From: Hydrogenophilales bacterium
Lineage (GTDB): Bacteria > Pseudomonadota > Gammaproteobacteria > Burkholderiales > Thiobacillaceae
Direction of reading: 5' to 3'
DNA: 64,000 nucleotides
Assembly: GCA_023258975.1 (NCBI GenBank)
Contig: JAHFRD010000003.1
Location: 124,001 to 188,000 of the forward strand
Below are positions 9,008 to 32,646 of this stretch, one piece after another; position 1 is the first letter of the stretch, and the number at the start of each line of letters is the position of its first letter. The translations under genes and the position numbers were made by a program. A model generated the notes under the pieces. It saw nothing but the letters and a program-made list of their open reading frames with translations. It searched no databases and was not told where the DNA came from.

Positions 9008-9820
9008 TTGAACGCGCATACCCTCGCTCCCGAAGAGCATTTCATCGAAAAAGAACCCTATTACGAAGCCGTCGGCGATGAAATCGCCATCTTCCAGGCG
9101 GCCCATGCCAACCGTTTGCCAATCCTGTTGAAAGGGCCGACGGGCTGCGGCAAGACCCGGTTCATGGAACACATGGCGTGGCGCCTGAAGCGGCCGCTGA
9201 TCACGGTTTCCTGCCATGACGACCTGACCGCTTCCGATCTGGTGGGGCGTTATCTGGTGAAGGGGGGCGAGACGGTCTGGGTGGACGGCCCGTTGACCCG
9301 CGCGGTGCGGGTAGGTGGCATCTGCTATCTGGACGAGATCGTGGAGGCGCGCAAGGACACGATGGTGGTAATCCACCCACTGGCCGACGACCGCCGCACC
9401 CTGCCGATGGAGAAACTGGGACAGTTGCTGGAGGCCTCGGATGAGTTTTGCCTGGCCATCTCCTACAACCCCGGCTACCAGAGCGTGCTGAAAGACCTCA
9501 AGCAATCCACCCGGCAACGCTTCGTCGCCCTGGGGTTCGATTACCCGGCGCCGGATCTGGAGGCGCGTATCGTCGCCACCGAGTCCGGGGTCGATGCCGC
9601 GCTGGCCGAGCGCTTGGTGCGCTTCGCCCAGACTACCCGCAATCTCAAGGGCGCCGGCCTGGAGGAAGGGGCATCAACGCGCCTGCTGGTGCATGCCGGC
9701 AAACTGATTACCAGCGGCATCGACCCGGTGCTGGCCTGCCGGAGCGCCGTCGCCCTGGCGATTACCGATGATGCCGACATGCTGGCGGCGATTCAGGAAC
9801 TCTCGTCCTCCTTGTTTTGA
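9008..9820 (+). CDS. cbbQ: CbbQ-type MoxR AAA+ ATPase (Rubisco activase motor)
   Basis: A 270-residue AAA+ ATPase of the CbbQ/NirQ/NorQ group. The Walker A motif GPTGCGKT lies near residues 43-50 and Walker B CYLDEIVE near 107-113. The [16 protein letters not shown] segment, the sensor region [21 protein letters not shown] and a helical C-terminal lid also fit CbbQ. CbbQ hexamers with CbbO remove inhibitory sugar phosphates from Rubisco. I place the start at TTG 9008, which gives the usual short CbbQ N-terminus; a GTG at 8966 would add 14 residues. cbbO follows, but only after an inserted toxin-antitoxin pair. No Rubisco gene lies in the window. A NorQ role with NorD is the main alternative. 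Confidence 0.85.
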
Positions 9821-9841
9821 TCTTTTATATGGCCATATACT
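9812..9841 (+). promoter_or_regulatory. Promoter and palindromic operator of the phd-vapC module
   Basis: A candidate sigma-70 promoter (TTGTTT at 9812-9817, 18-base spacer, TATACT at 9836-9841) starts inside the end of cbbQ. The spacer and -10 element overlap a perfect 14-base palindrome, TATATGGCCATATA, at 9826-9839. Phd-type antitoxins typically autorepress by binding such palindromes over their promoter. The A/T-rich composition contrasts with the flanking GC-rich genes. Confidence 0.6.
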
Positions 9842-9873: not shown

Positions 9874-10200
9874 ATGCAAACCATCAACATTCATGAAGCC
9901 AAAGCCAAGCTGTCCGAATACCTGAACGCCGTCGAGTCGGGCGAAACGGTTGTGATCTGCCGCCGCAATGTGCCGGTGGCGGAAATCGTGCCGATCCGCC
10001 AGGCGCGCAAGGAACCGCGCCCGATCGGGCTGGGGCCTTATGAGGAAGGCTACGAAATCTCCGCCGGTTTCTTCGAACCGCTGCCGGATGAGTTGCTCAA
10101 GGCGTTCAACGGTGAATTGCCCAACCCGTTGATGGACAGCTTTGCCGCCAATTCCGAACAACTCAAAGCCGCCGAGCCGGCATCGGAATACCGGAAGTGA
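9874..10200 (+). CDS. Phd/YefM-type antitoxin
   Basis: The 108-residue protein begins MQTINIHEAKAKLSEYLNAVESGETVVICRRNVPVAEIVP, the Phd/YefM DNA-binding fold that dimerises and represses its own operon. The C-terminal portion (about residues 60-108) is longer than in minimal Phd proteins and probably wraps the cognate toxin. The ATG has AGGAG seven bases upstream. The stop codon overlaps the GTG start of the PIN-domain toxin (GTGA), so the two are translationally coupled with antitoxin first, the usual type II order. The module lies between cbbQ and cbbO, which are normally adjacent, indicating insertion into an existing operon. Confidence 0.9.
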   Translation: MQTINIHEAKAKLSEYLNAVESGETVVICRRNVPVAEIVPIRQARKEPRPIGLGPYEEGYEISAGFFEPLPDELLKAFNGELPNPLMDSFAANSEQLKAAEPASEYRK

Positions 10201-10589
10201 AACTCCTGCTCGATACCTGTAGCTTCATCTGGCTGGCAACCGCACCGCACCAGCTATCCAGGGGCATGCGAGCGTTGTATGAAAACCCGGAGAACGAGGT
10301 GTACCTGTCGGCCGCCTCGGCCTGGGAGATCGCCATCAAGCATCGCAGTGGCAAGTTGCGTCTGGCTGGGGATATGCCGCCCGGTGAATTTGTTCCGGAG
10401 GCGAGGCGGCGCCACGGCATCGAGGCGCTGCCATTGCGCGAGGAAGACGGTTTTGTTCTCGGCAAGCTTCCGCCCATACACAACGACCCTTTCGACCGCA
10501 TGTTGATCTGCCAGGCCATCGCCAATCAGATGACGCTCCTCACCCCCGATCCGCTGATTACCCAGTACCCGGTACTCACTCGCTGGTGA
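10197..10589 (+). CDS. VapC-family PIN-domain toxin
   Basis: A 130-residue PIN-domain ribonuclease. The acidic active-site set is intact: Asp6 (LLLDTC), Glu44 (SAWEIAIK), Asp97 and Asp100 (HNDPFDRMLICQA), followed by the LLTPDPLITQYP segment common to this VapC subgroup. Such toxins cleave tRNA or rRNA until bound by the antitoxin. The GTG start overlaps the antitoxin stop by four bases. The gene in turn ends at 10589, just before the cbbO ATG, so cbbO translation may depend on ribosomes finishing vapC. No mutation that would obviously inactivate the toxin is visible. Confidence 0.9.
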   Translation: MKLLLDTCSFIWLATAPHQLSRGMRALYENPENEVYLSAASAWEIAIKHRSGKLRLAGDMPPGEFVPEARRRHGIEALPLREEDGFVLGKLPPIHNDPFDRMLICQAIANQMTLLTPDPLITQYPVLTRW

Positions 10590-18732: not shown

Positions 18733-19113
18733 TTACTCGGGGGTAACGGCCTCTTCGGCACGATCTACCAGTTCGATCAAGGCCATAGGCGCGTTGTCAC
18801 CCTGACGGAAGCCGAACTTGAGGATGCGTACATAACCACCGGGCCTCGCCTGAAAGCGGGGGCCGAGGTCATCAAACAGCTTGACCACCATCTCGCGATC
18901 ACGCAGGCGGTCAAAAGCCAGACGACGGTTCGCCAAGCTGGGTTTCTTGCCAAGCGTAATCAGCGGCTCGACTACTTTGCGCAATTCCTTGGCCTTGGGC
19001 AGCGTGGTCTTGATTGCCTCATGCTTGAGCAGGGCGTTGGACAGGTTCCGCAGCAGCGCGGCGCGGTGGCTGCTGGTGCGGTTGAGTTTGCGGTGTGCGA
19101 GACGATGGCGCAT
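18733..19113 (-). CDS. rplQ: Ribosomal protein bL17
   Basis: A 126-residue 50S protein beginning [24 protein letters not shown], the conserved bL17 N-terminus that binds 23S rRNA near the exit-tunnel side. Length matches the bacterial family (127 in E. coli). It is the last gene of the alpha operon, 20 bases after rpoA, and is followed by a strong terminator. Confidence 0.97.
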
Positions 19114-19133
19114 GTTGTTCTACCTAATAGGGA

Positions 19134-20126
19134 TCAGGGTTTCTCAAGGCCGACGGGCGGCCAGTTCTCGAGCTTCATGCCGAGAGTGAGACCACGAGCA
19201 GCCAGCACGTCCTTGATCTCGTTCAAGGATTTGCGGCCCAGGTTGGGGGTCTTGAGCAATTCGGTTTCACTGCGTTGAATCAGATCACCGATGTAATAGA
19301 TATTTTCCGCCTTCAGGCAGTTCGCGGAGCGTACCGTCAACTCCAGTTCATCGACCGGACGCAACAGGATCGGATCCACAACCGGGGAAGCGGGACTCTT
19401 GCTGCCCACCTCGGAAATGGTCGCAACCCCCTTGAGGTCGGCGAAGGACGCCAGTTGTTCGATCAACAGACGCGCGGAGTAACGAACCGCTTCCGCAGGC
19501 TCGATGACACCATTGGTTTCGATTTCGAGAATCAACTTGTCCAAGTCGGTTCGCTGTTCAACGCGAGCACTGTCGACACTGAAGCTGACTTTTCGAACCG
19601 GGCTGTAAAGCGCATCAACCATGATCACACCCACCGCCCGAGTTTCATCGGGCAGCACACGTGTGCTGGCCGGCACATAACCGCGCCCACCTTCGACCTT
19701 GATTTCCATTTCGAGTTTGCCACCTTTTGTGAGGTGAGCAATCACGTGGTCGGGGTTGAGTATCTCCACGTCATGACCAGCCTGAATATCCGCCGCTGTC
19801 ACCACACCTTCACCCGACTTGTTGATAGTCAACAAGGCGTCATCGCGGCTGTTCAATTTCACCGCCAAACCCTTCAGGTTGAGCAGGATGTCGACGACGT
19901 CTTCCTGTACGCCCTCGATTACGGAGTATTCATGCACGACACCGGCGATGCGAACCTCGGTGGGCGCGTACCCACGCATGGATGACAACAGGATGCGACG
20001 CAGGGCATTACCCAGCGTGTGGCCGTACCCGCGCTCGAAAGGCTCCAACGTGATGCGAGCCTGGCGGGGGGAAATGCTGTTGACCTCAACAATGCGCGGT
20101 TGCAGCAAATCACCGTTGTTAGACAT
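19134..20126 (-). CDS. rpoA: RNA polymerase alpha subunit
   Basis: The 330-residue alpha subunit dimerises to nucleate RNA polymerase assembly. The N-terminal assembly domain contains the conserved [16 protein letters not shown] segment. After a flexible linker near residue 235, the C-terminal domain contains [18 protein letters not shown], the helix-hairpin-helix that binds UP elements and activators. GAAGGA precedes the ATG. It lies between rpsD and rplQ, as in the alpha operon of beta- and gammaproteobacteria. Confidence 0.98.
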
Positions 20127-20154
20127 ATTTCGCTTCCTTCAGAGAACCAGGCAA

Positions 20155-20781
20155 TTACTTGGAATAAAGTTCAATCACCAAGTGCTCGTTGATGGTGGGC
20201 GGCAATTCGGCGCGTTGCGGCATTGCCTTGTATGTACCCTTGAGCGCCTTTGCGTCGACTTCCACCCATTCGGGGAAACCACGGCTGGCGGCGGCTTCGG
20301 CGGAAGCCTTGATACGCAGTTGGCCCTTGGACTTCTGGGCAACCTCGACCACGTCACCCGGCTTGACCTGGTAAGACGGAATGTTGACGCGTCTGCCATT
20401 TACCAACATGGCATTGTGGCGAACAGCCTGGCGCGCCTCGGTGCGGGAGGCACCAAAACCCATGCGGTAGGCGACGGTATCCAGGCGCGATTCCAGCATC
20501 TGCAGCAGGTTTTCACCCGTTACGCCCTTGCGCCGGTCGGCCGCAAAATAGGTAAGACGGAACTGGTGCTCAAGCACGCCGTAGATGCGACGGATCTTCT
20601 GCTTCTCGCGCAACTGACCGCCATAGTCGGACACGCGCATATTCTTGGCGCCGTGCTGGCCGGGGGCTTGGTTGCGGCGCTCGATGGCGCACTTGTCACT
20701 GAAACATTTTTCGCCCTTGATGAAGAGCTTCTCGCCTTCACGGCGGCACTGACGGCATTTGGGATCGAGGTTACGGGCCAC
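20155..20781 (-). CDS. rpsD: Ribosomal protein uS4
   Basis: A 208-residue primary 16S rRNA binding protein. The S4 RNA-binding domain starts near residue 97 ([23 protein letters not shown]). The N-terminal cysteine knot ([18 protein letters not shown]) is of the zinc-binding form rather than the cysteine-free type. It begins with GTG, preceded by AGGAG. In E. coli uS4 represses the alpha operon; whether that occurs here cannot be seen. Confidence 0.97.
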
Positions 20782-20798
20782 TTGTGCTCTCCTGTTGC

Positions 20799-21191
20799 TT
20801 AAATGCGGCGTTTCTTGGGCGGACGGCAGCCGTTGTGCGGCATGGGCGTCACGTCGGAGATGCTGGTGATCTTGTAGCCAAGGCCATTCAGCGCGCGCAC
20901 TGTGGAATCACGACCAGGGCCGGGGCCCTTGATGCGTACTTCCAGATTTTTCAAACCAAACTCCAGCGCCATCTTGCCGGCATTCTCGGCCGCAACCTGA
21001 GCCGCGAATGGCGTGCTCTTGCGCGAGCCTTTAAAGCCCGCGCCACCAGCGGTAGCCCAAGCAAGCGCATTGCCCTGACGGTCTGTAATCGTGACGATGG
21101 TGTTGTTGAAAGATGCGTGAATGTGCGCGATACCTTCGGCAACATTCTTTTTAACTTTTTTGCGCGCACGCGCTGCACTAGCCTTGGCCAT
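20799..21191 (-). CDS. rpsK: Ribosomal protein uS11
   Basis: A 130-residue 30S platform protein with the conserved [17 protein letters not shown] segment and a basic C-terminus ending in [11 protein letters not shown]. Alpha operon position between rpsM and rpsD. Confidence 0.97.
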
Positions 21192-21203
21192 GTCGTTTAC
21201 CTA

Positions 21204-21566
21204 TTACTTCTTGTTCTGCATCTGCTTGCGGGGGCCCTTGCGGGTACGAGCATTGGTGCGAGTACGCTGACCGCGCAGGGGCAGTCCCTTGCGGTGGCGC
21301 ACACCACGATAACAGCCGAGATCCATCAACCGTTTGATGTTCATCGTAATTTCACGGCGCAGGTCACCCTCCACCGTAAACTTGCCCACGCTGTCGCGGA
21401 GCTTCTCGATGTCGCCGTCCGTCAGATCCTTGATCTTCTGCGCGGGGTTCACACCCGCCTCCAGGCAGATGAGCCGCGCGCGATTACGGCCGACACCATA
21501 GATCGACGTGAGCGCGATCTCGGCATGCTTATGGTTTGGGATATTTACCCCAGCAATACGGGCCAT
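21204..21566 (-). CDS. rpsM: Ribosomal protein uS13
   Basis: A 120-residue 30S head protein with N-terminus [24 protein letters not shown] and the basic tail [18 protein letters not shown] that reaches the tRNA sites. First long gene of the alpha operon, 80 bases after rpmJ. Confidence 0.97.
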
Positions 21567-21646
21567 CTAACTAACCCCCAACAAACAAAACGAAGCATTA
21601 TAGTGAAGCAGACCGCCATTTGGCAAGCTGCAGTTGGTAAGCACCA

Positions 21647-21760
21647 TCAGCCCTGGCGCTGCTTGTGTCGCGCTTCGCTGCAAATCACGCGAACCACGCC
21701 CTTGCGGCGAACAATCTTGCACTTACGGCAAATCTTCTTTACAGAGGCTTGAACACGCAT
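21647..21760 (-). CDS. rpmJ: Ribosomal protein bL36
   Basis: A 37-residue 50S protein starting [15 protein letters not shown] and ending RHKQRQG. The zinc ribbon ligands Cys11, Cys14, Cys27 and His32 are present (C+ type), so this copy needs zinc. AAAGGAGC precedes the ATG. It occupies the usual place after infA, but infA here is decayed, so rpmJ translation no longer follows an intact neighbour. Confidence 0.96.
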
Positions 21761-21814
21761 GTTCGGCTCCTTTATCAAAAATCACTTCGCACGGCAGGCC
21801 TTACACTGACGCGA

Positions 21815-22002
21815 TTAAGCGTGCAGTGCGTGCTCGACCGTGACCTTTTCACCGGGAAGAATGCGTAGGTGATCTGTACGAATTCTTCTCGGTAACTTGT
21901 TCCGGTACTGCCACAAAGCCTTTTACAGATTGATGCAGGTAGAGGCTCTCGGCAGATTTTCCAATACTTCACCCTGTACCCAAGCGGCATCTAATCAGCC
22001 AT
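21815..22002 (-). pseudogene. infA: Decayed infA (translation initiation factor IF-1) remnant
   Basis: An ATG (22000-22002) lies five bases after the secY stop, where betaproteobacteria carry infA. After a frameshift close to the start, one frame reads VQGEVLENLPRA, then an in-frame TAA, then degenerate sequence, then LRILPGEKVTVE, and stops at 21815. Intact IF-1 proteins read QGEVLENLP near the start and YIRILPGDKVTVEL about 30 residues on, so both ends of the OB-fold are recognisable at about the right spacing. The conserved middle (LENGH...SGKMR) and the C-terminal YDLS...R tail are lost. IF-1 is essential, so an intact infA copy must exist elsewhere. An open 71-codon frame over this region is out of frame with the IF-1 similarity. 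Confidence 0.82.
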
Positions 22003-22007
22003 CGAGG

Positions 22008-23333
22008 TTACCTGGAGATGAAATTGCCGCCCTTAAAGTTGGCCTTCTTGAGCAGTGACTCATACTGGTGAGTCATGACATAAGCCTGAACCTGGGCCAT
22101 GAAATCCATGGTGACCACCACGATAATCAGCAGTGATGTGCCCCCGAAATAGAAAGGCACATTCCAGTTGACGATAAGAAACTCGGGAATCAGACAAACG
22201 AGCGTGATATAGGCGGCGCCTACCAGCGTCAATCGTGTCATGACCTTGTCTATAAATCGTGCCGTCTGCTCGCCAGGGCGATAACCGGGGACAAAAGCGC
22301 CACTCTTTTTCAGGTTATCCGCCGTTTCTCTGGGGTTGAAAACCAGCGCGGTGTAGAAGAAGCAGAAAAATACGATCGCCGTGGCATACAACAAAACGTA
22401 GATGGGCTGGCCGGGGGAAAGCGCGGAACCGAGATCTTTCAGCCAGGAGAAGCCTTCGTGGCTACCAAACCAACCAGCGATCGTCGCCGGAAAAAGAATG
22501 ATGCTGGAGGCGAAGATAGGGGGGATCACACCCGCCATGTTGAGCTTGAGCGGCAAATGCGAGCTCTGTCCGCCATACACCTTGTTTCCGACCTGACGCT
22601 TGGCGTAGTTGACGAGAATCTTGCGTTGTCCACGTTCGACGAACACGACCAATGCGGTAACCAGTAGAGCGCCGACAAAAAGCACCAGCACGAGCGGGAT
22701 GGAGAATGCACCGGTACGTGTCAACTCAAGCGTCCCGGCGATTGCGTGAGGCAATCCGGCGGCGATACCGGCAAAGATGATGATGGAGATGCCGTTACCC
22801 AAGCCGCGCTCTGTAATCTGTTCACCCAACCACATCAGGAACATCGTGCCGGCGACCAGCGTAATCATGGTCGTAAGACGGAACATGAGGCCGGCCTCAA
22901 GAACCAGTCCTGGCTGGCTCTCCAACGCGATGGAAATCCCGATGGCTTGGAAGGTAGCCAGCACAACCGTGCCATAGCGGGTGTACTGAGTAATCTTGCG
23001 TCGGCCCGCTTCGCCTTCTTTCTTTAATGCCTCTAGTTGAGGCGACACAACCGTCATCAACTGCATGATGATGGAGGCCGAGATGTACGGCATGATTCCG
23101 AGCGCGAATACCGTGAAGCGGGACAGAGCGCCGCCCGAGAACATGTTGAACATGCCGAGGATGCCGCCCTGCTGGCTGCGGAATAATTGCTCAAGTGCCG
23201 CCGGGTCGATACCTGGGACGGGGATATGCGCCCCAATCCGGTAAACAATCAGCGCACCCAGCAAGAACAGCAGGCGACTTTTCAGATCACCCATCTTGCC
23301 GGACATCTGGAGAAGGTTGGCGGCACCAGCCAA
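22008..23333 (-). CDS. secY: SecY, protein translocase channel subunit
   Basis: The 441-residue inner-membrane channel of the Sec translocon shows ten hydrophobic segments by eye. The plug/TM2 region follows [30 protein letters not shown]-type sequence near residues 55-85, and the cytoplasmic loop with [14 protein letters not shown] lies near 245. It works with SecE (encoded at 48764) and SecG. It is the last intact gene of the spc operon proper, 15 bases after rplO. Confidence 0.97.
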
Positions 23334-23348
23334 GATTCAATCCTCTTC

Positions 23349-23786
23349 TCAGGCTTCGGCCAGACTGCCGCCGGCAGCCTCGATCGCGGCACGAGCACCC
23401 TTGGTGGCCGCGATACCGACGAGTTTGATGGGTCTGTCAATCTCACCAGCCAGCATGACCTTGGCGCTGCGAGTCATCTGAGAAACCAGGCCGGATTGTT
23501 TCAGTACCAGCATGTCCACGGTATCGACCGGCAAGGCTTGGATATCCGAGAGACGCACTTCGGCTTTGAATGCCCGATCCAGAGAAATGAAGCCACGCTT
23601 GGGAAGACGACGCGCCAGAGGCATCTGACCACCCTCAAAACCGACTTTATGAAAACCGCCGGCGCGAGATTTCTGGCCCTTATGACCACGGCCACCCGTT
23701 TTACCGAGGCCGGAGCCGATACCACGTCCGGGACGCTTGCTGGAGTGGGTGCTACCCACTGCGGGCTTGATAGTATTCAGCTTCAT
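23349..23786 (-). CDS. rplO: Ribosomal protein uL15
   Basis: A 145-residue 50S protein with the glycine-rich N-terminal arm ([20 protein letters not shown]) that threads through 23S rRNA. I start at ATG 23786, which overlaps the rpmD stop by one base; a GTG one codon earlier is possible. Spc operon member. Confidence 0.95.
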
Positions 23787-23977
23787 CACGCAACCTCGAA
23801 TTTCACCAGGTAGTTGACCCGGTTGATCATGCCGCGCACGGCCGGGGTATCTTCCAGAACCTTGCTCTGGTTCATACGCTTGAGCCCAAGGCCAAGCACA
23901 CTGGCGCGGTGGGACTGAATGGTTCCGATTGGACTTCTGACCAACGTAACCTTGATCTTTCCTTTGGCCTCGCTCAT
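23786..23977 (-). CDS. rpmD: Ribosomal protein uL30
   Basis: A 63-residue 50S protein with the core [25 protein letters not shown] and ending in [14 protein letters not shown]. Its stop overlaps the rplO start; it follows rpsE by three bases. Spc operon member. Confidence 0.96.
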
Positions 23978-23980
23978 GAC

Positions 23981-24496
23981 TTACTCCAGAATTTCTGCGA
24001 CGGTCTTGCCACGCTTCGCCGCGATTTCACCGGGCGTCATCATTCGCGACAAACCGTCCAGCGTCGCGCGTACGACGTTGTAAGGATTGGTGGAGCCAAG
24101 GCACTTGGCCAGCACATTGTGCACGCCCATCACCTCGAATACCGCGCGCATCGCACCACCAGCGATAATGCCGGTACCTTCGGACGCGGGCTGGATCAGG
24201 ACACGGGAAGCGCCATGACGCCCGATGACAGCATGATGGAAGGTTCCATTCTTGAGGGATACCTTGACCATCTTGCGGCGGGCTTCGTCCATCGCTTTCG
24301 TGACGGCAACCGGCACTTCACGGGCCTTTCCTTTGCCCATGCCGACGCCGCCGTCACCGTCGCCAACCACGGTCAGCGCGGCAAAGCTGAGGATACGGCC
24401 ACCCTTCACCACCTTGGTGACACGGTTGACCGAAATCATCTTTTCCTGCAGGCCGTCGCCGCGATCTTCCTGCTGTTGCTGTTGGGGTTTCGCCAT
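23981..24496 (-). CDS. rpsE: Ribosomal protein uS5
   Basis: A 171-residue 30S protein. The double-stranded RNA-binding domain spans about residues 17-80 ([19 protein letters not shown]), and the C-terminal [20 protein letters not shown] segment is characteristic. The N-terminus has an unusual glutamine run (five Gln at residues 5-9). Spc operon member. Confidence 0.97.
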
Positions 24497-24507
24497 GATC
24501 TTCTCGC

Positions 24508-24861
24508 TTAGAACTGCAAACCGTGTTCGCGGGCTGCTTCAGCCAGTGCCTTGACACGGCCATGAAAAGCAAAACCGGCACGGTCGAAAGAAACTTTCTC
24601 GACGCCAATCGCCTTGGCTTTCTCGGCGATGAGTTGGCCAATTGCCTTGGCTGCGTCTACGTTGCCACCATTTTTCAACTGTGCGCGCACGTCCTTCTCG
24701 AGGGAGGATGCGCAAGCCAATACGTTGCCACCTGTCGCGTCGATAAGTTGCGCGTAAATGTGAGTATTGCTGCGATGCACACAAAGGCGGATCGCACCCA
24801 GCTCCGCGATCTTGGCGCGGGTTTTGCGCGCCCTGCGCAGCCGACGGAATTTCTTGTCCAT
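24508..24861 (-). CDS. rplR: Ribosomal protein uL18
   Basis: A 117-residue 5S rRNA binding protein with the basic start [18 protein letters not shown] and conserved C-terminal [21 protein letters not shown]. Length equals that of E. coli uL18. Spc operon, between rplF and rpsE. Confidence 0.97.
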
Positions 24862-24876
24862 TGCAATCGCTCCAGG

Positions 24877-25410
24877 TTATTTCTTCTTGGTCTCTTTACG
24901 GACCACGACTTCATCCGAATAACGCACACCCTTGCCCTTGTAGGGCTCCGGCTTACGGTACGCGCGCACATCCGCCGCAACCTGACCAACCACCTGCTTA
25001 TCCAGGCCTTTAATCAGAATCTCGGTCTGGGTAGGGGTCTCGACCTTGACGCCATCGGGCATCATGTGCTCGACGGGATGCGAGAAACCCAGGGTCAGAT
25101 TAAGTTTGTTGCCTTGCGCCTGAGCACGATAGCCTACGCCGACCAAAGTCAACTTACGCTCGAATCCCTTGGTTACGCCCAGGATCATGTTGGCGAGGAG
25201 AGCCCGTGTGGTACCGGACATGGCGTGCGCCTGGCGCGAATCATTGGCCGTTGCGACTCGCAACTGACCATCGGAATGGGTGACACTGATCTGCGGAACC
25301 AGCTTCTGCATCAGGGTTCCCTGAGGGCCCTTGATGGAAATTGCGTCGCCAGTGAGATTGACCTCAACACCAGACGGCACAGCGATAGGATTTTTAGCAA
25401 CGCGCGACAT
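24877..25410 (-). CDS. rplF: Ribosomal protein uL6
   Basis: A 177-residue 50S protein near the factor-binding site, made of two repeated alpha/beta domains. It contains the C-terminal signature [19 protein letters not shown] precedes the ATG. Spc operon member. Confidence 0.97.
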
Positions 25411-25418
25411 TTTTTACC

Positions 25419-25814
25419 TCACGCCACAACGCAGAGAACTTCGCCACCAACACCCAGCGACCGAGCCTTACGGTCGGTCATGACACCCTGGGACGTGGAA
25501 ACGATCGCCACTCCGAGGCCGTTCATCACGCGGGGCAATCCATCGCAGCCCTTGTAGATGCGCAGGCCCGGACGGCTGACACGTTCAATTTTTTCGATAA
25601 CAGGGCGTCCCGCGTAATAGCGTAACGCCACTTCCATTTCCGGTAGGCCACCATTCTCACGCACCTGATAATCATCGATGTAGCCTTCGTCCTTGAGGAC
25701 TTGTGCAATCGCGTTTTTCAGCTTGGAGGACGGCATTTTCACCGTAGCCTTCTCGACCATCTGACCATTACGAATCCGGGTCAGCATGTCGGCGATGGGA
25801 TCACTCATGCTCAT
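25419..25814 (-). CDS. rpsH: Ribosomal protein uS8
   Basis: A 131-residue 16S rRNA central-domain binder starting [18 protein letters not shown] and ending [16 protein letters not shown] 25808 is a possible alternative start two codons in. In E. coli uS8 represses the spc operon at the rplE region; no such structure was verified here. Confidence 0.96.
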
Positions 25815-25825
25815 ATATGCACCCC

Positions 25826-26131
25826 TTACCAGCTAGCCTTGACCACACCGGGAATCTCACCCTTCATGGCGATCTCACGGATCTTGTTGCGGCACAAGCC
25901 GAATTTGCGGAATACGCCACGTGGGCGGCCAGTCAACTGGCAACGGTTGCGCAGGCGGCTCTCACTGGCATTGCGCGGCAACGTCTGCAGCTTCAAGCGC
26001 GCATCCATACGCTCGCCATCGTCCAGCTTGACATCGTTGATGATCGCCTTGAGCGCCTGGCGCTTTGCGGCAAACTTCTTCACCGTGCGGCGACGCTTGT
26101 CTTCACGGTTGATCAGTGCGAGCTTAGCCAT
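25826..26131 (-). CDS. rpsN: Ribosomal protein uS14
   Basis: A 101-residue long-form uS14 without the CxxC zinc ribbon; the C-terminal signature [24 protein letters not shown] is intact. The ATG at 26131 ([14 protein letters not shown]) gives the family N-terminus; an upstream in-frame extension would overlap rplE. Spc operon member. Confidence 0.96.
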
Positions 26132-26138
26132 CGCAACC

Positions 26139-26678
26139 TCAATTCTTGAAAGGAAACTTGAACGCCGACAGAAGAGCCTTGGCTTCTTCATCGGTCTTGG
26201 CAGTCGTGGTAATGGTGATATTCATTCCACGCAGAGCATCAATCTTTTCGTACTCAATTTCCGGAAAAATAATCTGCTCTTTGACACCCATGTTGTAGTT
26301 GCCACGGCCGTCAAATCCCTTGCCACCAATACCACGAAAGTCGCGAATACGAGGAATTGCCACACTAATCAGGCGATCCAGGAACTCGTACATACGTTCG
26401 CGGCGCAAGGTGACCATACAACCCACCGGATAATGGTCACGGATCTTGAAGCCGGCGATCGACTTGCGAGAAAGCGTTACAACAGGCTTCTGGCCAGCAA
26501 TCTTGGACATATCACCTACTGCGTGATCCATGATTTTCTTGTCGCCAACCGCTTCACCCACACCCATATTCAGGGTGACCTTGGTAATACAAGGCACTTC
26601 CATCACCGATTTGTAGCCAAAGCGATCCATAAGCTGCTTGACCACGGTGTCCTTGTAGTAATCGTGCATACGAGCCAT
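26139..26678 (-). CDS. rplE: Ribosomal protein uL5
   Basis: A 179-residue 5S rRNA binding protein that bridges to the 30S head. The start [18 protein letters not shown] at ATG 26678 is preceded by AAGGAG and gives the standard family length; a GTG two codons upstream lies inside the ribosome binding site. It contains [13 protein letters not shown]-like and [13 protein letters not shown] motifs. Spc operon. Confidence 0.97.
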
Positions 26679-26687
26679 GACCACTCC

Positions 26688-27002
26688 TTACGCGCTCAGT
26701 ACTTCGCCATTGGATTTGAAGAAACGCACCTTGCGCCCATCTTCCAACGTTTTGATACCTACGCGATCTCCCTTACCAGTAGCGGCATTGAATACCGCTA
26801 CATTGGACAGATGAATAGGCATGTCTTTGTCCTGGAAGCCGCCAGTCGTGCCGCGCATCGGATTAGGCTTGACAGCCTTGCGTACGCGATTCACACCCTC
26901 GACAACCAGCTTCTCGTCAAGCACGCGCAGCACAGTGCCACGCTTGCCCTTATCTTTTCCCGTCAGGACGATGATTTCATCGCCTTTGCGTATCTTGCGC
27001 AT
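26688..27002 (-). CDS. rplX: Ribosomal protein uL24
   Basis: A 104-residue assembly-initiator protein of the 50S subunit with an N-terminal KOW motif ([20 protein letters not shown]). Length equals that of E. coli. Spc operon, between rplN and rplE. Confidence 0.97.
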
Positions 27003-27013
27003 GATCAGGCTCC

Positions 27014-27382
27014 TTACAGCACTTCCGGCGCCAACGAAACGATCTTCATGAATCGCTCAGTGCGCAGCTCACGGGTAACAGGGCCAAAAATACGAGTGCC
27101 GATCGGCTCAAGTTTAGTATTGAGCAATACAGCCGCATTTTTGTCGAATTTGATGAGCGAGCCGTCAGGGCGGCGCACACCTTTAGCCGTACGCACCACA
27201 ACGGCGTTATACACATCACCTTTTTTCACGCGACCACGAGGTGCAGCATCCTTGATGCTGACCTTGATGATGTCGCCTACACCGGCGTAACGCCGTTTCG
27301 AGCCACCCAACACCTTGATGCACATGACGGTGCGCGCACCGGTGTTGTCAGCCACGTCCAACGTGGATTGCATCTGGATCAT
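27014..27382 (-). CDS. rplN: Ribosomal protein uL14
   Basis: A 122-residue 50S protein beginning [21 protein letters not shown] and ending [11 protein letters not shown]. The ATG at 27382 gives the conserved N-terminus; upstream in-frame codons are not conserved. It is the first gene of the spc operon, after a 184-base gap from rpsQ. Confidence 0.97.
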
Positions 27383-27566
27383 GTTTTCTCTCCAACTTGA
27401 CCACCACATCGGGCAGACAGTTTTGGATCCCGTTCGGGTTGCGCGTTTTCACGCGAATCATGTTGCGTAACCATGACTGGTTACGAGGTTACTTCCCGCC
27501 ACGCACGTATGTGGATCAGGAAAGCCCGCCATTCTATTGGCGGGCATCGGCATAAGCAAGTCTTTT
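27383..27566 (-). promoter_or_regulatory. S10/spc operon junction between rpsQ and rplN
   Basis: This is the largest gap within the S10-spc-alpha block, at the place where E. coli has the spc promoter. It contains a hairpin GCCCGCC/GGCGGGC (27524-27530 with 27539-27545), which follows rpsQ in the transcript and has only a short T-run, and a second inverted repeat GTAACCA/TGGTTAC (27467-27484). A weak terminator plus a new promoter for rplN onward is likely, but I cannot name convincing -35/-10 boxes. Confidence 0.45.
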
Positions 27567-27839
27567 TTATACCAACTGCGCTTTCTGAATCAGGCGCGCC
27601 ACGCGCCAGGCCTTGGTTTTGGACAACGGCCGGCACTCCTCAATGACGACAAGGTCGCCCATACCGAATTCGTTGTTCTCATCGTGGGCGTGGTACTTCT
27701 TGGACAGACGAATAATCTTGCCGTAGAGCGGGTGCTTGACCTTGCGCTCCACCAGTACGGTCACGGTCTTGTTCATCTTGTCGCTGACTACGGTCCCGGT
27801 AAGGGCACGCGCGACATTTTCTGTTTGCTGTTCGCTCAT
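27567..27839 (-). CDS. rpsQ: Ribosomal protein uS17
   Basis: A 90-residue primary 16S rRNA binding protein with the OB-fold segment [23 protein letters not shown] and the [17 protein letters not shown] motif. It is the last gene of the S10 operon, 11 bases after rpmC. Confidence 0.97.
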
Positions 27840-27850
27840 GATCCTGCTCG

Positions 27851-28051
27851 TCAGTTGCCGGCCGTAAGCTTCTGTTCCCGCATGACTGTGCGCGCACGCG
27901 CGATGTCACGGCGAACCTTGCGAAGCTCGTGGGTCTTGTTGGTCTGCTGGGTGGAAAGCTGCATACGCAGGCTGAACTGTGCTCGGAGTAATTCCTTGAC
28001 TTCCTGCTTCAGTTCTTCCGTGGATTTGGCCTTGAGTTCATTCGCTTTCAT
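27851..28051 (-). CDS. rpmC: Ribosomal protein uL29
   Basis: A 66-residue two-helix protein at the polypeptide exit ([18 protein letters not shown]...[13 protein letters not shown]). The ATG at 28051 with GGGGTG upstream gives the family N-terminus; four extra codons upstream would overlap rplP. Confidence 0.96.
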
Positions 28052-28052
28052 G

Positions 28053-28469
28053 TCACACCCCAAAATGGCGAGTCACAAACGTGGTGGCGATGGGCAATTT
28101 GGCGGCCGCCAGGCGGAAAGCCTCGCGTGCCGTAACCTCATCCACGCCTTCCATCTCGTAGAGCACCTTGCCGGGCTGTATTTCCGCGACGTAGTACTCC
28201 GGGTTGCCCTTGCCGTTACCCATGCGAACTTCGGCAGGTTTTTGTGAAATCGGCTTATCCGGGAAAATGCGAATCCAGATCCGTCCACCACGCTTGATGT
28301 GGCGCGTCATCGCGCGACGAGCGGCCTCAATCTGGCGCGCGGTGATACGTCCACGCGCAATGGCTTTGAGGCCGAACTCACCGAAACTCACCTTGGCGCC
28401 GCGCGTGGCCAGGCCGGTATTGCGGCCTTTCTGCTCCTTGCGGTACTTCCTTCTGGCTGGCTGAAGCAT
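28053..28469 (-). CDS. rplP: Ribosomal protein uL16
   Basis: A 138-residue 50S protein that helps place the aminoacyl end of tRNA. It starts [19 protein letters not shown] and has the conserved [22 protein letters not shown] segment. AAGGAG precedes the ATG. S10 operon. Confidence 0.97.
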
Positions 28470-28472
28470 TTG

Positions 28473-29177
28473 TTACTCCTTTCCCGCACGCGAGGCCGGA
28501 CGGCGCGGACGACGCTCGGGTTCGGGCGCGGCTACCGGCTTCTCACCGCGAGCCAGGGCGTCACCCTTATAAACCCAAACTTTGATACCGATAATCCCAT
28601 AGGTTGTCTTGGCTTCGGAGAAGCCATAGTCAATATCGGCGCGAAGTGTATGCAACGGTACGCGACCTTCGCGGTACCACTCGGTACGCGCGATTTCGAT
28701 TCCGTTCAGACGGCCGGCGGACATGATCTTGATACCCTGGGCACCAAAACGCATGGCGTTCTGCATGGCGCGTTTCATGGCGCGGCGGAACATGATTCGC
28801 TTTTCGAGCTGATTGGCGATCGAGTCGGAAATCAACTGCGCGTCGGTCTCAGGCTTGCGTACTTCCTCGATGTTCAGCGTAACCGGTACGGACATCATGG
28901 CGTTAAGTTGACGACGCAGCGATTCGATGTCCTCACCCTTCTTGCCAATCACCACGCCAGGGCGCGATGAAAACAGGGTAATACGAGCATTCTTGGCCGG
29001 ACGCTCAATAACGATGCGGCTCAGGGAGGCATGGGCGAGCTTCTTCTTGAGAAAGTCGCGCACCTTGATGTCCTCGATCAGCGTGGTCGCATAGTTCTTG
29101 CTGTTGGCATACCACTTGGATGTCCAACCCTTGTTGACACTCAGGCGGAATCCTATCGGATGAATCTTCTGTCCCAT
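28473..29177 (-). CDS. rpsC: Ribosomal protein uS3
   Basis: A 234-residue 30S head protein starting [18 protein letters not shown]. The KH domain motif [17 protein letters not shown] lies near residues 59-75, and a basic tail ([15 protein letters not shown]) ends the protein. The ATG at 29177 has GGAAGG upstream; a longer frame is not conserved. S10 operon. Confidence 0.97.
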
Positions 29178-29187
29178 TTGCCTTCCT

Positions 29188-29517
29188 TCAGTCGCCAACC
29201 GTCACAGTGATGTGACAGGTAGGTTTGATGATGCGGTTGCCGCGGCCCTTGGCCCGCGCGGTGAAACGTTTCAGGCTGGCGCCCTGATCGACGTAGATGG
29301 TTTTCACCTTCAGTTCGTCGATATCCGCGCCTTCGTTGTGCTCCGCGTTGGCGATGGCCGATTCGAGCACTTTCTTGATCGTGAAGGCGGCCTTCTGCGG
29401 TGAGAAGGTAAGAATATTCAATGCCAGGTCGACACGCTTGCCACGCACCATGTCGGCGACCAGACGGGCCTTCTGAGAGGAAAGCCGCGTGCCACGCAGA
29501 ATTGCTGATACTTGCAT
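29188..29517 (-). CDS. rplV: Ribosomal protein uL22
   Basis: A 109-residue protein whose extended hairpin lines the exit tunnel. Conserved [18 protein letters not shown] and [18 protein letters not shown] segments are present; the latter includes the macrolide-related loop. AAGGAG precedes the ATG. S10 operon. Confidence 0.97.
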
Positions 29518-29528
29518 CGCTGCTCTCC

Positions 29529-29807
29529 TTACTTCTTCTTGGCCTTTTTGTCGGCGGCGTGACCCTTGAACGTCCGGGTCAGCGCGAATTCGCCGAGTTT
29601 GTGGCCTACCATGTTTTCCGTGACATACACGGGGATATGTTGTTTACCGTTGTGCACGGCAACCGTCAGGCCGATGAAGTCAGGCAGCACGGTAGAACGG
29701 CGCGACCAGGTCTTGATCGGCTTTTTGTCACCCACAGACAAAGCGGTCAGCACCTTTTTCATCAGGTGGCCGTCTACGAAGGGGCCTTTTTTTACGGAAC
29801 GAGCCAT
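29529..29807 (-). CDS. rpsS: Ribosomal protein uS19
   Basis: A 92-residue 30S head protein beginning [18 protein letters not shown] with the conserved [17 protein letters not shown] and [16 protein letters not shown] segments. Length equals that of E. coli. S10 operon. Confidence 0.97.
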
Positions 29808-29820
29808 TTCAACTCACCTC

Positions 29821-30645
29821 TTACGCTTTGTGACGGCGGCGCACGATCATATTATCGGTACGCTTGTTGTTACGAGTACGGTAGCCCTTGGCAGGCTGAC
29901 CCCAAGGAGAGACGGGTACGCGGCCTTCGCCGGTACGGCCTTCACCACCACCGTGCGGGTGATCGACCGGGTTCATCACGGTACCGCGAACCGTCGGGCG
30001 AACACCGCGCCAGCGCATGGCACCCGCCTTGCCGATCGAGCGCAGGTTGTGCTCTTCGTTACCGACTTCACCCAGGGTGGCACGGCAGTCCACATGAACA
30101 CGGCGGATTTCTCCAGAGCGCAGTCGTAGCTGCGCATAGCTGCCTTCACGGGCCAGGAGTTGCACGCTGGTGCCAGCGGAACGAGCTAGCTGTGCGCCCT
30201 TGCCGGGCATCATCTCGATGCAGTGAATTGTGGAACCCACCGGAATATTCCGTAACGGCATGCAATTGCCCGGCTTGATCGGCGCTTCGGCGCCACTCAT
30301 CAAGCTCGCTCCAACTTCAACACCACGCGGAGCGATGATGTAGCGGCGCTCGCCGTCGGCGAAGCACAGTAATGCGATATGCGCGCTGCGGTTGGGATCA
30401 TATTCGATACGCTCAACCTTGCTGGCGATGCCATCTTTGTTGCGCTTGAAGTCAACAATCCGGTAATGCTGCTTATGGCCACCACCCTTGTGACGCGTGG
30501 TGATATGACCATTGTTATTGCGGCCCGCCTTGCTGTTCTGCTTTTCGACCAACGAGGCGATCGGCTTGCCTTTATGCAGCCCGGGGGTAACCACCTTGAC
30601 GACTGCGCGACGACCGGCGGAGGTCGGTTTGACTTTTACCAACAT
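29821..30645 (-). CDS. rplB: Ribosomal protein uL2
   Basis: A 274-residue core 50S protein near the peptidyl transferase centre. The invariant C-terminal segment [14 protein letters not shown], including the conserved His, is present, followed by the basic [15 protein letters not shown] tail. AGGAG precedes the ATG. S10 operon. Confidence 0.98.
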
Positions 30646-30648
30646 GAC

Positions 30649-30960
30649 TTATTCTCCTGCCGCGAAGTTGAGTTCTTGACCCGGCTTCAGGCATACATAG
30701 GCCTTCTTCCAGTCAGAACGCTTGCCATTGAAACGACCAAAGCGCTTGCTCTTGCCCTTCACGTTGGTGACCTGCACACCCTTGACTTCGACCTTGAACA
30801 GCAACTCAACAGCCGCCTTGATCTCGGGCTTGGTCGCGCTGGTGGCAACACGGAAAATGACCTGCTCACGCTTGTCGGCAAGCATCGTCGCCTTTTCGGA
30901 GATGACCGGCGCCAGGATGACCTGGAGCAGGCGCTCCTCTTTCATCTGCACGGCGCTCAT
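30649..30960 (-). CDS. rplW: Ribosomal protein uL23
   Basis: A 103-residue exit-tunnel protein that docks trigger factor and SRP. The [16 protein letters not shown] and [12 protein letters not shown] segments are typical. It overlaps the rplD stop by four bases (ATGA), implying coupling. Confidence 0.97.
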
Positions 30961-31580
30961 GCGTACATCTCCTCAATAGACTTGACCGCTTCGCGTGTCA
31001 TGAGCACGCGATCAAAACGAATAAGACTGACGGGGTCGGCATGCTGTGGCTCAAGCAACAACACGTTGGGCAGGTTGCGCGAGGACAACCAAAGGTTTTC
31101 GTCAATCTCGTGGGCAATGATCAAAACACGATCAGCGATCCCCATATCCTTCAACTTGCCCGCCAGTATCCTGGTCTTGGGAGCCTCGATAACCAGGCTA
31201 TCAACCACGGACAGACGTCCATCCTGAACAAGACGCGAGAAGATCGTCGCAATTCCGGCACGGAACATTTTGCGGTTGACCTTCTGGCTGAAGTTCTCAT
31301 CCGGCTTATTCGGAAAAGCACGGCCACCTCCACGCCAGATGGGCGAGGAAGTCATACCCGCGCGAGCACGGCCAGTACCCTTCTGCTTGAACGGCTTCTT
31401 GGTGCTATGACGCACCTCGGCGCGCGTCATCTGGGCACGATCACCGGTTCTGGCATTGGCCATGTAAGCGGTAACCAACTGATGCACCAGGGCTTCGTTG
31501 TAATCGCGCGCAAAGACGGCATCGGACGCGCTAACCGCGCCCGCATCCTGCCCCTGCTCATTAATCAGCTTCAAATTCAT
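30957..31580 (-). CDS. rplD: Ribosomal protein uL4
   Basis: A 207-residue protein with the tunnel loop [20 protein letters not shown] near residues 60-80. The ATG at 31580 ([11 protein letters not shown]) overlaps the rplC stop. In E. coli uL4 represses the S10 operon through a leader hairpin; the leader here precedes rpsJ and is only 14 bases from tuf, so that mechanism is unlikely in the same form. Confidence 0.96.
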
Positions 31581-32236
31581 CACGCAACTCCCTCGAAGGC
31601 AACCTTCACGGCGGGACATACAACAACATCACCACCCTTGGGGCCGGGTACAGCACCCTTGATCAGGAGCAATTGACGATCGCCATCGACACGCACGACC
31701 TCCAGATTCTGGATCGTGCGCTGCACCGCACCCAGATGCCCCGACATCCGCTTGCCAGGAAAAACCCGACCAGGATCCTGCGCCATACCAATGGAGCCTG
31801 GAACATTATGGGAACGCGAGTTGCCATGCGAGGCACGCTGCGACTTGAAGTGGTGGCGCTTGATGGTGCCAGCAAAACCCTTGCCCTGCGTCACTCCGGA
31901 GACGTCGACCATCTGGCCCGCCCGGAAGATTTCCGCCTTGACTGCGGCACCAGGCTGGAACTCACCAACCACCTCGGAGGCGACGCGAAACTCAGCCAGA
32001 CCCAGCGCCGCTTCCACACCCGCCTTGGCCAGATGCCCGGCGACGGGCTTGGTGATACGACTGGGCTTGCGGGAACCGTAGGCGACCTGAACAGCGGAGT
32101 AACCATCCGTTGCGGCCGTCTTGACTTGACTGACGCGGTTGTTCGACACGTCCAGCACCGTCACCGGAATGGACACGCCATCCTCGGTAAAAATGCGGGT
32201 CATGCCAATCTTCCGACCGACAAGGCCTAGACTCAT
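31580..32236 (-). CDS. rplC: Ribosomal protein uL3
   Basis: A 218-residue early-assembly 50S protein with the conserved [21 protein letters not shown] segment, which contains the glutamine that PrmB methylates in E. coli's equivalent region, and the [17 protein letters not shown] loop. AAAGGA precedes the ATG. A candidate internal promoter lies in the 98-base gap upstream. Confidence 0.97.
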
Positions 32237-32298
32237 TTTTGTATCCTTTTTAAGGCGCCGACTACAATTGGCCGGCGGTTACAAATAGAAAGCGCGAG

Positions 32299-32328
32299 AG
32301 TATACACACCCTCGCGCCCGTAAGGCAA
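32299..32328 (-). promoter_or_regulatory. Candidate internal promoter before rplC
   Basis: Read on the minus strand: TTGCCT (32323-32328), an 18-base spacer and TATACT (32299-32304). The -10 box lies inside the loop of a GCGCGAG/CTCGCGC inverted repeat (32292-32317), so promoter and hairpin overlap. It would give rplC onward extra transcription independent of rpsJ. Confidence 0.4.
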
Positions 32329-32334
32329 CCCGAA

Positions 32335-32646
32335 TTACTGTAGTTTGATCTCTACGTCCACGCCAGCGGGTAGATCCAGTTTCATCAGCGCATCAACCGT
32401 TTTGTCGGTGGGATCGACAATATCCATCAGACGCTTGTGGGTGCGGATTTCGAGCTGGTCACGCGAGGATTTGTTCACGTGCGGGGAGCGCAGGATATCA
32501 AAGCGTTCGATGGAGGTAGGCAGGGGCACAGGGCCCTTGACCACGGCACCGGTACGCTTGGCGGTATCGACGATTTCCATTGCTGATTGGTCGATCAGCT
32601 TGTAATCGTAAGCCTTGAGGCGGATGCGAATTTTTTGGTTTGCCAT
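32335..32646 (-). CDS. rpsJ: Ribosomal protein uS10 / NusE
   Basis: A 103-residue 30S protein that also acts in antitermination with NusB and contacts NusG. It begins [20 protein letters not shown] with the conserved [19 protein letters not shown]. It lies only 14 bases after tuf, joining the str and S10 operons into one run. Confidence 0.98.

What the first reader, a model, noticed from the sequence alone, without database searches (positions are those of the whole stretch)
21815..22002. infA (IF-1) is a pseudogene at its normal place between secY and rpmJ
The region five bases after the secY stop keeps an ATG and two well-spaced IF-1 blocks (QGEVLENLP and LRILPGEKVTVE), but has a frameshift near the start, an in-frame TAA, a scrambled central segment and a lost C-terminus. 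IF-1 is essential, so a second infA must have taken over. Decay inside the most conserved operon block of the genome shows gene replacement caught in progress, and it leaves rpmJ without its normal coupled neighbour.
Basis: partly seen in the sequence, partly recalled or inferred. Interest (0 to 1): 0.78.

Follow-up and report, generated by a model that had tools for sequence, protein, structure and literature searches.

The report
Old infA pseudogene between secY and rpmJ
In this bacterium the usual copy of the gene for translation factor IF-1 has decayed inside the ribosomal-protein operon while a second, older copy elsewhere in the genome stays intact; relatives show the same loss, and its mirror image, at several stages.

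Summary
Between secY and rpmJ (minus strand, 22002 down to about 21782) lies a full-length but broken infA, aligning to a congener's intact infA far above shuffled controls. Congeners carry different lesions at the same place, so assembly error is not the explanation. The only infA found in the genome is a second type (infA2), about 136 kb away: 91 codons with a basic C-terminal tail. Of 23 genomes of the genus, 7 keep the operon copy, 1 has an open but drifting copy, 6 have remnants, 4 have lost nearly all of it, 5 cannot be assessed. Of 68 family genomes at least 90% complete: 40 both copies, 7 infA1 only, 20 infA2 without a sound infA1, 1 neither (score-based). Known parallels: rpmJ1/rpmJ2 in the spc operon and chloroplast infA. 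A new example of a known kind, with an unusually complete series of stages and reciprocal losses.

The parts
22008..23333 (-). secY, upstream neighbour
   Evidence: SecY relatives
21782..22002 (-). infA1 pseudogene, whole alignable remnant
   Evidence: aligned end to end with intact infA of G012 and other congeners
22000..22002 (-). former start codon ATG, in-frame TAG at codon 4 (21991-21993)
21950..21976 (-). remnant block reading QGEVLENLP
21923..21925 (-). TAA stop in the frame of the QGEVLENLP block
21833..21868 (-). remnant block reading LRILPGEKVTVE
21838..21853 (-). 16-base stretch more conserved among seven decayed copies than the rest of the remnant
   Evidence: column mean 0.86; 4 of 2000 column shuffles reach it
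21767..21773 (-). AAAGGAG, likely ribosome-binding site of rpmJ, kept in the remnant species
21647..21760 (-). rpmJ (L36), intact downstream neighbour

Best explanation
The feature is the dead operon copy (infA1) of a duplicated essential gene. Ancestors of this family carried two IF-1 genes: infA1 in the spc operon between secY and rpmJ, and infA2 elsewhere, coding an IF-1 with an extra basic C-terminal tail. Because either one can supply IF-1, selection on one copy can lapse. In or soon after the ancestor of a group of 12 congeners the need for infA1 lapsed; it then decayed separately in each lineage, as a full-length, nearly neutral remnant in one subgroup (this window) and by deletion in the other. 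IF1-2 is now the only IF-1 found in these species. Shown: broken frame, single intact infA2, pattern in relatives, near-neutral change of the remnants. Inferred: that IF1-2 performs the essential step in initiation, that redundancy was the cause, and when selection lapsed.
For: One PF01176 match in the own genome (100% complete), G000:C5:9615-9806, 81.4 bits, no stop inside; it encodes 91 aa, matches TIGR00008 infA at 101.6 bits, cut-off 61.15, and aligns without gaps over 72 residues to solved IF-1 chains 9fco_I and 1ah9_A (E. coli by recall). The locus in 23 genomes of the genus: 7 intact, 1 open but diverged, 6 remnants, 4 nearly deleted (40-121 bp between secY and rpmJ), 5 not assessable. 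All 11 without a sound infA1 at a readable locus have infA2 (G006's copy is cut by a contig end). On a quick LG+G4 tree of 15 spc/alpha proteins (33 rows) the group of 12 species (G009 with its locus cut off) has SH-aLRT 82, its two subgroups 100 and 100, and joins G012, which has both copies, at 97. Codon-position differences: intact pairs in the genus 0.047, 0.024, 0.424; remnant pairs 0.332, 0.367, 0.480. Fourfold sites of flanking genes differ by 0.451, first and second positions by 0.041. IF1-1 and IF1-2 separate with SH-aLRT 98 in a tree of 73 of the 76 sequences I had; the partial G006 and the decayed G018 and G023 rows were left out. Within sole-copy subgroups IF1-2 changes slowly relative to spc proteins (ratios 0.22 and 0.10) against 0.66, 0.75 and 1.38 in two-copy sets.
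Against: No expression, essentiality or complementation data. Lesions are mostly not shared: only one derived base is shared by at least five of seven (codon 24), so several separate lapses inside the group fit as well. Remnants keep some excess at third positions (ratio 0.73, not 1), so they were not neutral for the whole time since the group split. The copy of G018 that I call decaying still scores 92.7 bits with TIGR00008, above the cut-off; the judgement rests on its codon pattern and lost stop. The 12-species group has moderate support (82), and G009 and G014 have under 40% of the columns. The surviving infA2 is of another subtype than that of the sister species G012, so it may have been exchanged. 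Over all sole-copy pairs of both subgroups the IF1-2 ratio is 0.53 and between the subgroups 0.66, about that of IF1-1 (0.55) and of two-copy IF1-2 sets. One relative, G028 (91% complete, 190 contigs), shows neither copy.
Confidence: 0.93

Rival explanations
1. The infA2 now in use was acquired horizontally, and its arrival, not an old redundancy, freed infA1.
For: IF1-2 of the loss group clusters with that of G010 (SH-aLRT 93), while the sister species G012 and also G015, G016 and G021 have IF1-2 of a group that branches apart with SH-aLRT 99. The neighbourhood of infA2 differs between species: a surA-type gene beside it in G000 and 7 others, no such hit in the other 34 stretches compared, some of them short (neighbours of five others).
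Against: So short a protein gives a poorly resolved tree (44 of 67 inner branches open). G010, which keeps infA1, has the loss group's subtype, and genus g2 lost infA1 with the other subtype, so the subtype does not determine the loss.
Confidence: 0.2
2. The 220-base stretch is kept for another function: a spacer or cis-acting RNA or DNA element ahead of rpmJ, or a new small gene (71-codon frame 21775-21990).
For: The secY-rpmJ interval of the six remnant species is still 231-247 bp against 249-260 in seven intact congeners. One 16-base block (21838-21853) is more conserved than the rest, 4 of 2000 column shuffles. The last about 45 columns before rpmJ are conserved.
Against: The 71-codon frame is not beyond chance (P 0.073 in 300 shuffles), the longest frames of relatives are in other frames and do not resemble it, and it matches no NCBIfam model at E 0.1. 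No Rfam match at gathering scores in 19000-32500 and no promoter- or terminator-like site in 21600-22100. Four congeners manage with 40-121 bp. The block is the former GDKVT codons and could simply have lost constraint later.
Confidence: 0.06
3. Sequencing or assembly error in an intact gene.
For: Single assembly; no reads were available.
Against: About a third of aligned positions differ from the intact infA of G012 (143 of 213 identical, 14 gap positions inside the gene), with secY and rpmJ intact on both sides, and five other congeners show comparable decay.
Confidence: 0.01

Closest known systems
rpmJ1/rpmJ2 and rpsN1/rpsN2: deletion of a spc-operon gene where an old duplicate exists outside the operon (PMC8046335)
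   Same: A core translation gene lost from the conserved operon, rpmJ in three separate events, with a divergent paralogue elsewhere that predates the loss (passages read).
   Different: The deletions analysed in the passages I saw are of rpmJ, rplJL, rpsN and secY; infA appears once, as present in the spc operon of the ancestor of Proteobacteria. Here full-length remnants in several species show intermediate stages, and the opposite loss (infA2) also occurs.
Parallel losses of chloroplast infA with transfer to the nucleus (Millen et al. 2001, seen only as cited in PMC4918201)
   Same: infA lost repeatedly from its place, with another copy supplying the factor.
   Different: There the working copy is in the nucleus; here it is an old bacterial paralogue in the same genome, and either copy may be the one lost.
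infA2 of Cupriavidus metallidurans (PMC2864759) and of Bordetella pertussis (PMC7742992)
   Same: A second IF-1 gene in Betaproteobacteria is already annotated (passages).
   Different: In the Bordetella paper's table the name infA2 stands between secY and rpmJ; neither set of passages reports loss of the operon copy.

Membership tests
infA pseudogene | Homology to infA at the syntenic place | tested here: met
infA pseudogene | No intact IF-1 frame | tested here: met
   TAG at codon 4, frame change, TAA at 21923-21925; PF01176 does not find the locus in G000
infA pseudogene | Loss of codon-position constraint in related copies | tested here: met
   ratio of first/second to third positions 0.73 in six remnants against 0.08 in seven intact congeners; not fully 1
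infA pseudogene | No product made | not testable with these tools
   needs RNA and protein data
IF-1 (TIGR00008) for the surviving gene infA2 | Score above the curated cut-off over the full model | tested here: met
   101.6 bits against 61.15, residues 3-71, model 1-69 of 69
IF-1 (TIGR00008) for the surviving gene infA2 | Essential function in initiation | not testable with these tools
   inferred from being the only match found
Deletion of an operon gene backed by a pre-existing paralogue | Paralogue older than the loss | tested here: met
   two separate groups with SH-aLRT 98; sister species and other genera carry both

The most novel reading that the evidence does not exclude
Two IF-1 paralogues are fully interchangeable in vivo and are lost reciprocally and repeatedly among close relatives, and in this lineage a piece of the dead infA1 (16-base block 21838-21853) has been kept as a cis-acting element for the downstream rpmJ-rplQ genes.
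Probability: 0.07. Interest if true: 0.55.

Novelty: new member of a known kind. Interest (0 to 1): 0.4.

Why it matters
IF-1 is usually taken as a fixed essential gene (general knowledge). One genus here holds species with infA1 only, infA2 only and both, plus an open but drifting copy (G018), so whether two divergent IF-1s (36-44 of 72 residues identical, one with a basic tail) are interchangeable can be tested by simple swaps. It also warns annotation and essential-gene pipelines that the operon copy may be dead and the working one elsewhere.

Tried and rejected
New small gene in the 71-codon frame: rejected. Structured RNA, promoter or terminator in the remnant: none found at the thresholds used. 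Loss of rpmJ coupling: the leader AAAGGAG is kept. Reading absence in G002, G004, G005, G007, G029 and G035 as gene loss: rejected, because neither SecY nor S13 was found there; G009's contig ends just after secY. G066 (only an rpmJ-side match) and G070 (no match) were tried by DNA alone and left as unknown. In the order-wide survey 7 of 120 genomes had only weak-scoring infA (best E 6.5e-23 to 5.7e-20: G000, G008, G040, G046, G125, G140, G174) and G120 none; of these only the loci of G000, G008 and G040 were read (a DNA search for G046's found nothing), so the others are candidates only, and the match list of that call was cut off.

Named host: not established. G036's contig C34 and G039's contig C6 have the same lengths as named records (Thiobacillus sp. 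QR_Bin.5, Limnobacter litoralis), which places the family near Thiobacillus and the order among Betaproteobacteria by inference only. The 80 named loci were used for titles and lengths alone.

Full report
What is there. The spc/alpha genes run on the minus strand. After secY (22008-23333) the sequence holds a start codon at 22000-22002, a stop at codon 4, two recognisable IF-1 blocks in another frame, a stop between them in that frame, and a 3' part that still aligns to the last codons of infA; then come the AAAGGAG leader and rpmJ (21647-21760). Aligned to the intact infA of congener G012 it scores 66, against a mean of -43.9 (sd 10.7) for 200 shuffled copies. The remnant is about 21782-22002, longer than first reported.

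The working copy. PF01176 finds one match in the own genome, at G000:C5:9615-9806, 81.4 bits, without stops. The window is C5:124001-188000, so this lies about 136 kb from the remnant. The gene codes 91 residues: a 72-residue IF-1 that aligns without gaps to solved IF-1 chains and a tail ending QFRRR. NCBIfam names it infA, 101.6 bits against a cut-off of 61.15. It stands beside a SurA-type gene.

Relatives at the same place. I examined the genus (own genome and 22 relatives). Intact infA1: G001, G003, G010, G012, G015, G016, G021 (7 of 23). Open but diverged, with a lost stop codon: G018. Remnants: G000, G006, G008, G011, G017, G020. Short gap: G013 (121 bp), G014 (40), G019 (41), G022 (40). 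Not assessable because the gene cluster was not found or is cut: G002, G004, G005, G007, G009. G001 and G003 have only infA1, the mirror image of the window's genome (G003 is 100%, G001 89% complete).

Family and order. Of the 20, 9 are remnants (G000, G006, G008, G011, G017, G020, G023, G034, G065), 1 is open but drifting (G018), 5 are deleted (G022, and in genus g6 G073, G082, G083, G087 with 94-107 bp) and 5 have no readable locus (G004, G007, G035, G066, G070). In genus g2, G063 and G064 are intact; G065 is broken but less decayed, its last 20 codons still reading as in G064; G023 and G034 are more decayed. G040, a one-contig genome of another family, has 238 bp without an IF-1 frame there and one infA2-like gene. 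By parsimony on the tree the state changes at least 3 times over 31 rows (G009 and G018 not counted). The g6 and G040 losses are not on that tree; their relatives with infA1 suggest that they are further events.

How it decayed. In the genus, intact copies differ by 0.047, 0.024 and 0.424 at the three codon positions; remnants by 0.332, 0.367 and 0.480. G018 differs from the remnants by 0.269, 0.332 and 0.392, so its open frame drifts much like a dead gene; against intact copies third positions still dominate (ratio 0.25; 0.45 for G000), as expected if constraint ended late. Flanking genes differ by 0.451 at fourfold sites and 0.041 at first and second positions. The decay is thus old and near neutral, though the ratio of 0.73 in remnants says that some constraint lasted after the species began to part. 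Derived bases are mostly private: at 17 positions where G018 differs from a column invariant in seven intact congeners, 13 are shared with at most one of six remnants and 1 with four or more; only one derived base is common to at least five of the seven. This fits a lapse of selection near the base of the group or several separate lapses.

The two IF-1s. IF1-1 (72 residues) and IF1-2 (86-93 residues where complete) are 36-44 of 72 identical within 15 two-copy genomes compared, and separate with SH-aLRT 98. Within the two sole-copy subgroups (6 and 4 species) IF1-2 varies little: ratios to spc-protein change 0.22 and 0.10, against 0.75, 1.38 and 0.66 in three two-copy sets. Between the two subgroups the ratio is 0.66, and over all their pairs 0.53, about the 0.55 of IF1-1. 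Pairs are not independent, so this is a hint at tighter constraint within the subgroups, not a test.

Mechanism. Two genes can each supply IF-1, so mutations that disable one are tolerated. The operon copy can lose its frame without disturbing neighbours because secY ends before it and rpmJ has its own ribosome-binding site. Redundancy as the cause, and IF1-2 doing the whole job, are inferences.

What is known. PMC8046335 (passages) describes spc-operon losses backed by old paralogues for rpmJ and rpsN and places infA in the spc operon of the ancestor of Proteobacteria. Second infA genes are annotated in Cupriavidus and Bordetella (passages). Chloroplast infA losses are well known (passages of PMC4918201). 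PMC13030852 (passages) calls IF1 one of three essential initiation factors and shows that inserts in mitochondrial IF2 can stand in for it in E. coli. PMC9514032 was seen in passages and adds little. The listings of searches showed no paper that by title or abstract deals with loss of infA from the spc operon in this group; the lists were capped and the library holds open-licence papers only.

Verdict. Real, correctly recognised, older and more ordinary than thought, with a graded and reciprocal series in relatives that makes it a good test case.

Noticed in passing
G000:C5 near 9549-9824 (L062) and infA2 loci of relatives: IF1-2 subtypes do not follow the species tree (G012, G015, G016, G021 against G010 and the loss group), and the neighbours of infA2 change between species.
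   Followed up: partly
window 21838-21853: GGTGA-AAGGTCACGG stretch is the best conserved 16 columns of seven decayed copies outside the rpmJ leader (4 of 2000 shuffles reach it); by eye it has partial dyad symmetry in some species, without supporting paired changes.
   Followed up: partly
L069 (G028): secY and rpmJ only 18 bp apart and no infA of either type found in a 91% complete 1.4 Mb genome of 190 contigs.
   Followed up: no
L246, L247, L248, L249 (G087, G073, G082, G083): infA-less secY-rpmJ intervals share a hairpin-like TTCGG...GCCGA stretch and GAATGGAGAGAACC before rpmJ.
   Followed up: no
L238 (G038): Operon infA has no ATG at the usual place and odd residues in conserved positions; perhaps another early decay.
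   Followed up: no
L062 11070-17147: 2025-codon open frame with LEPRILFDGAA near its start, beside infA2; looks like a large surface or secreted repeat protein (motif recalled, not searched).
   Followed up: no
window 9874-10589: Two small adjacent genes that look like an antitoxin-toxin pair of the Phd/VapC kind (from the translations, not searched).
   Followed up: no
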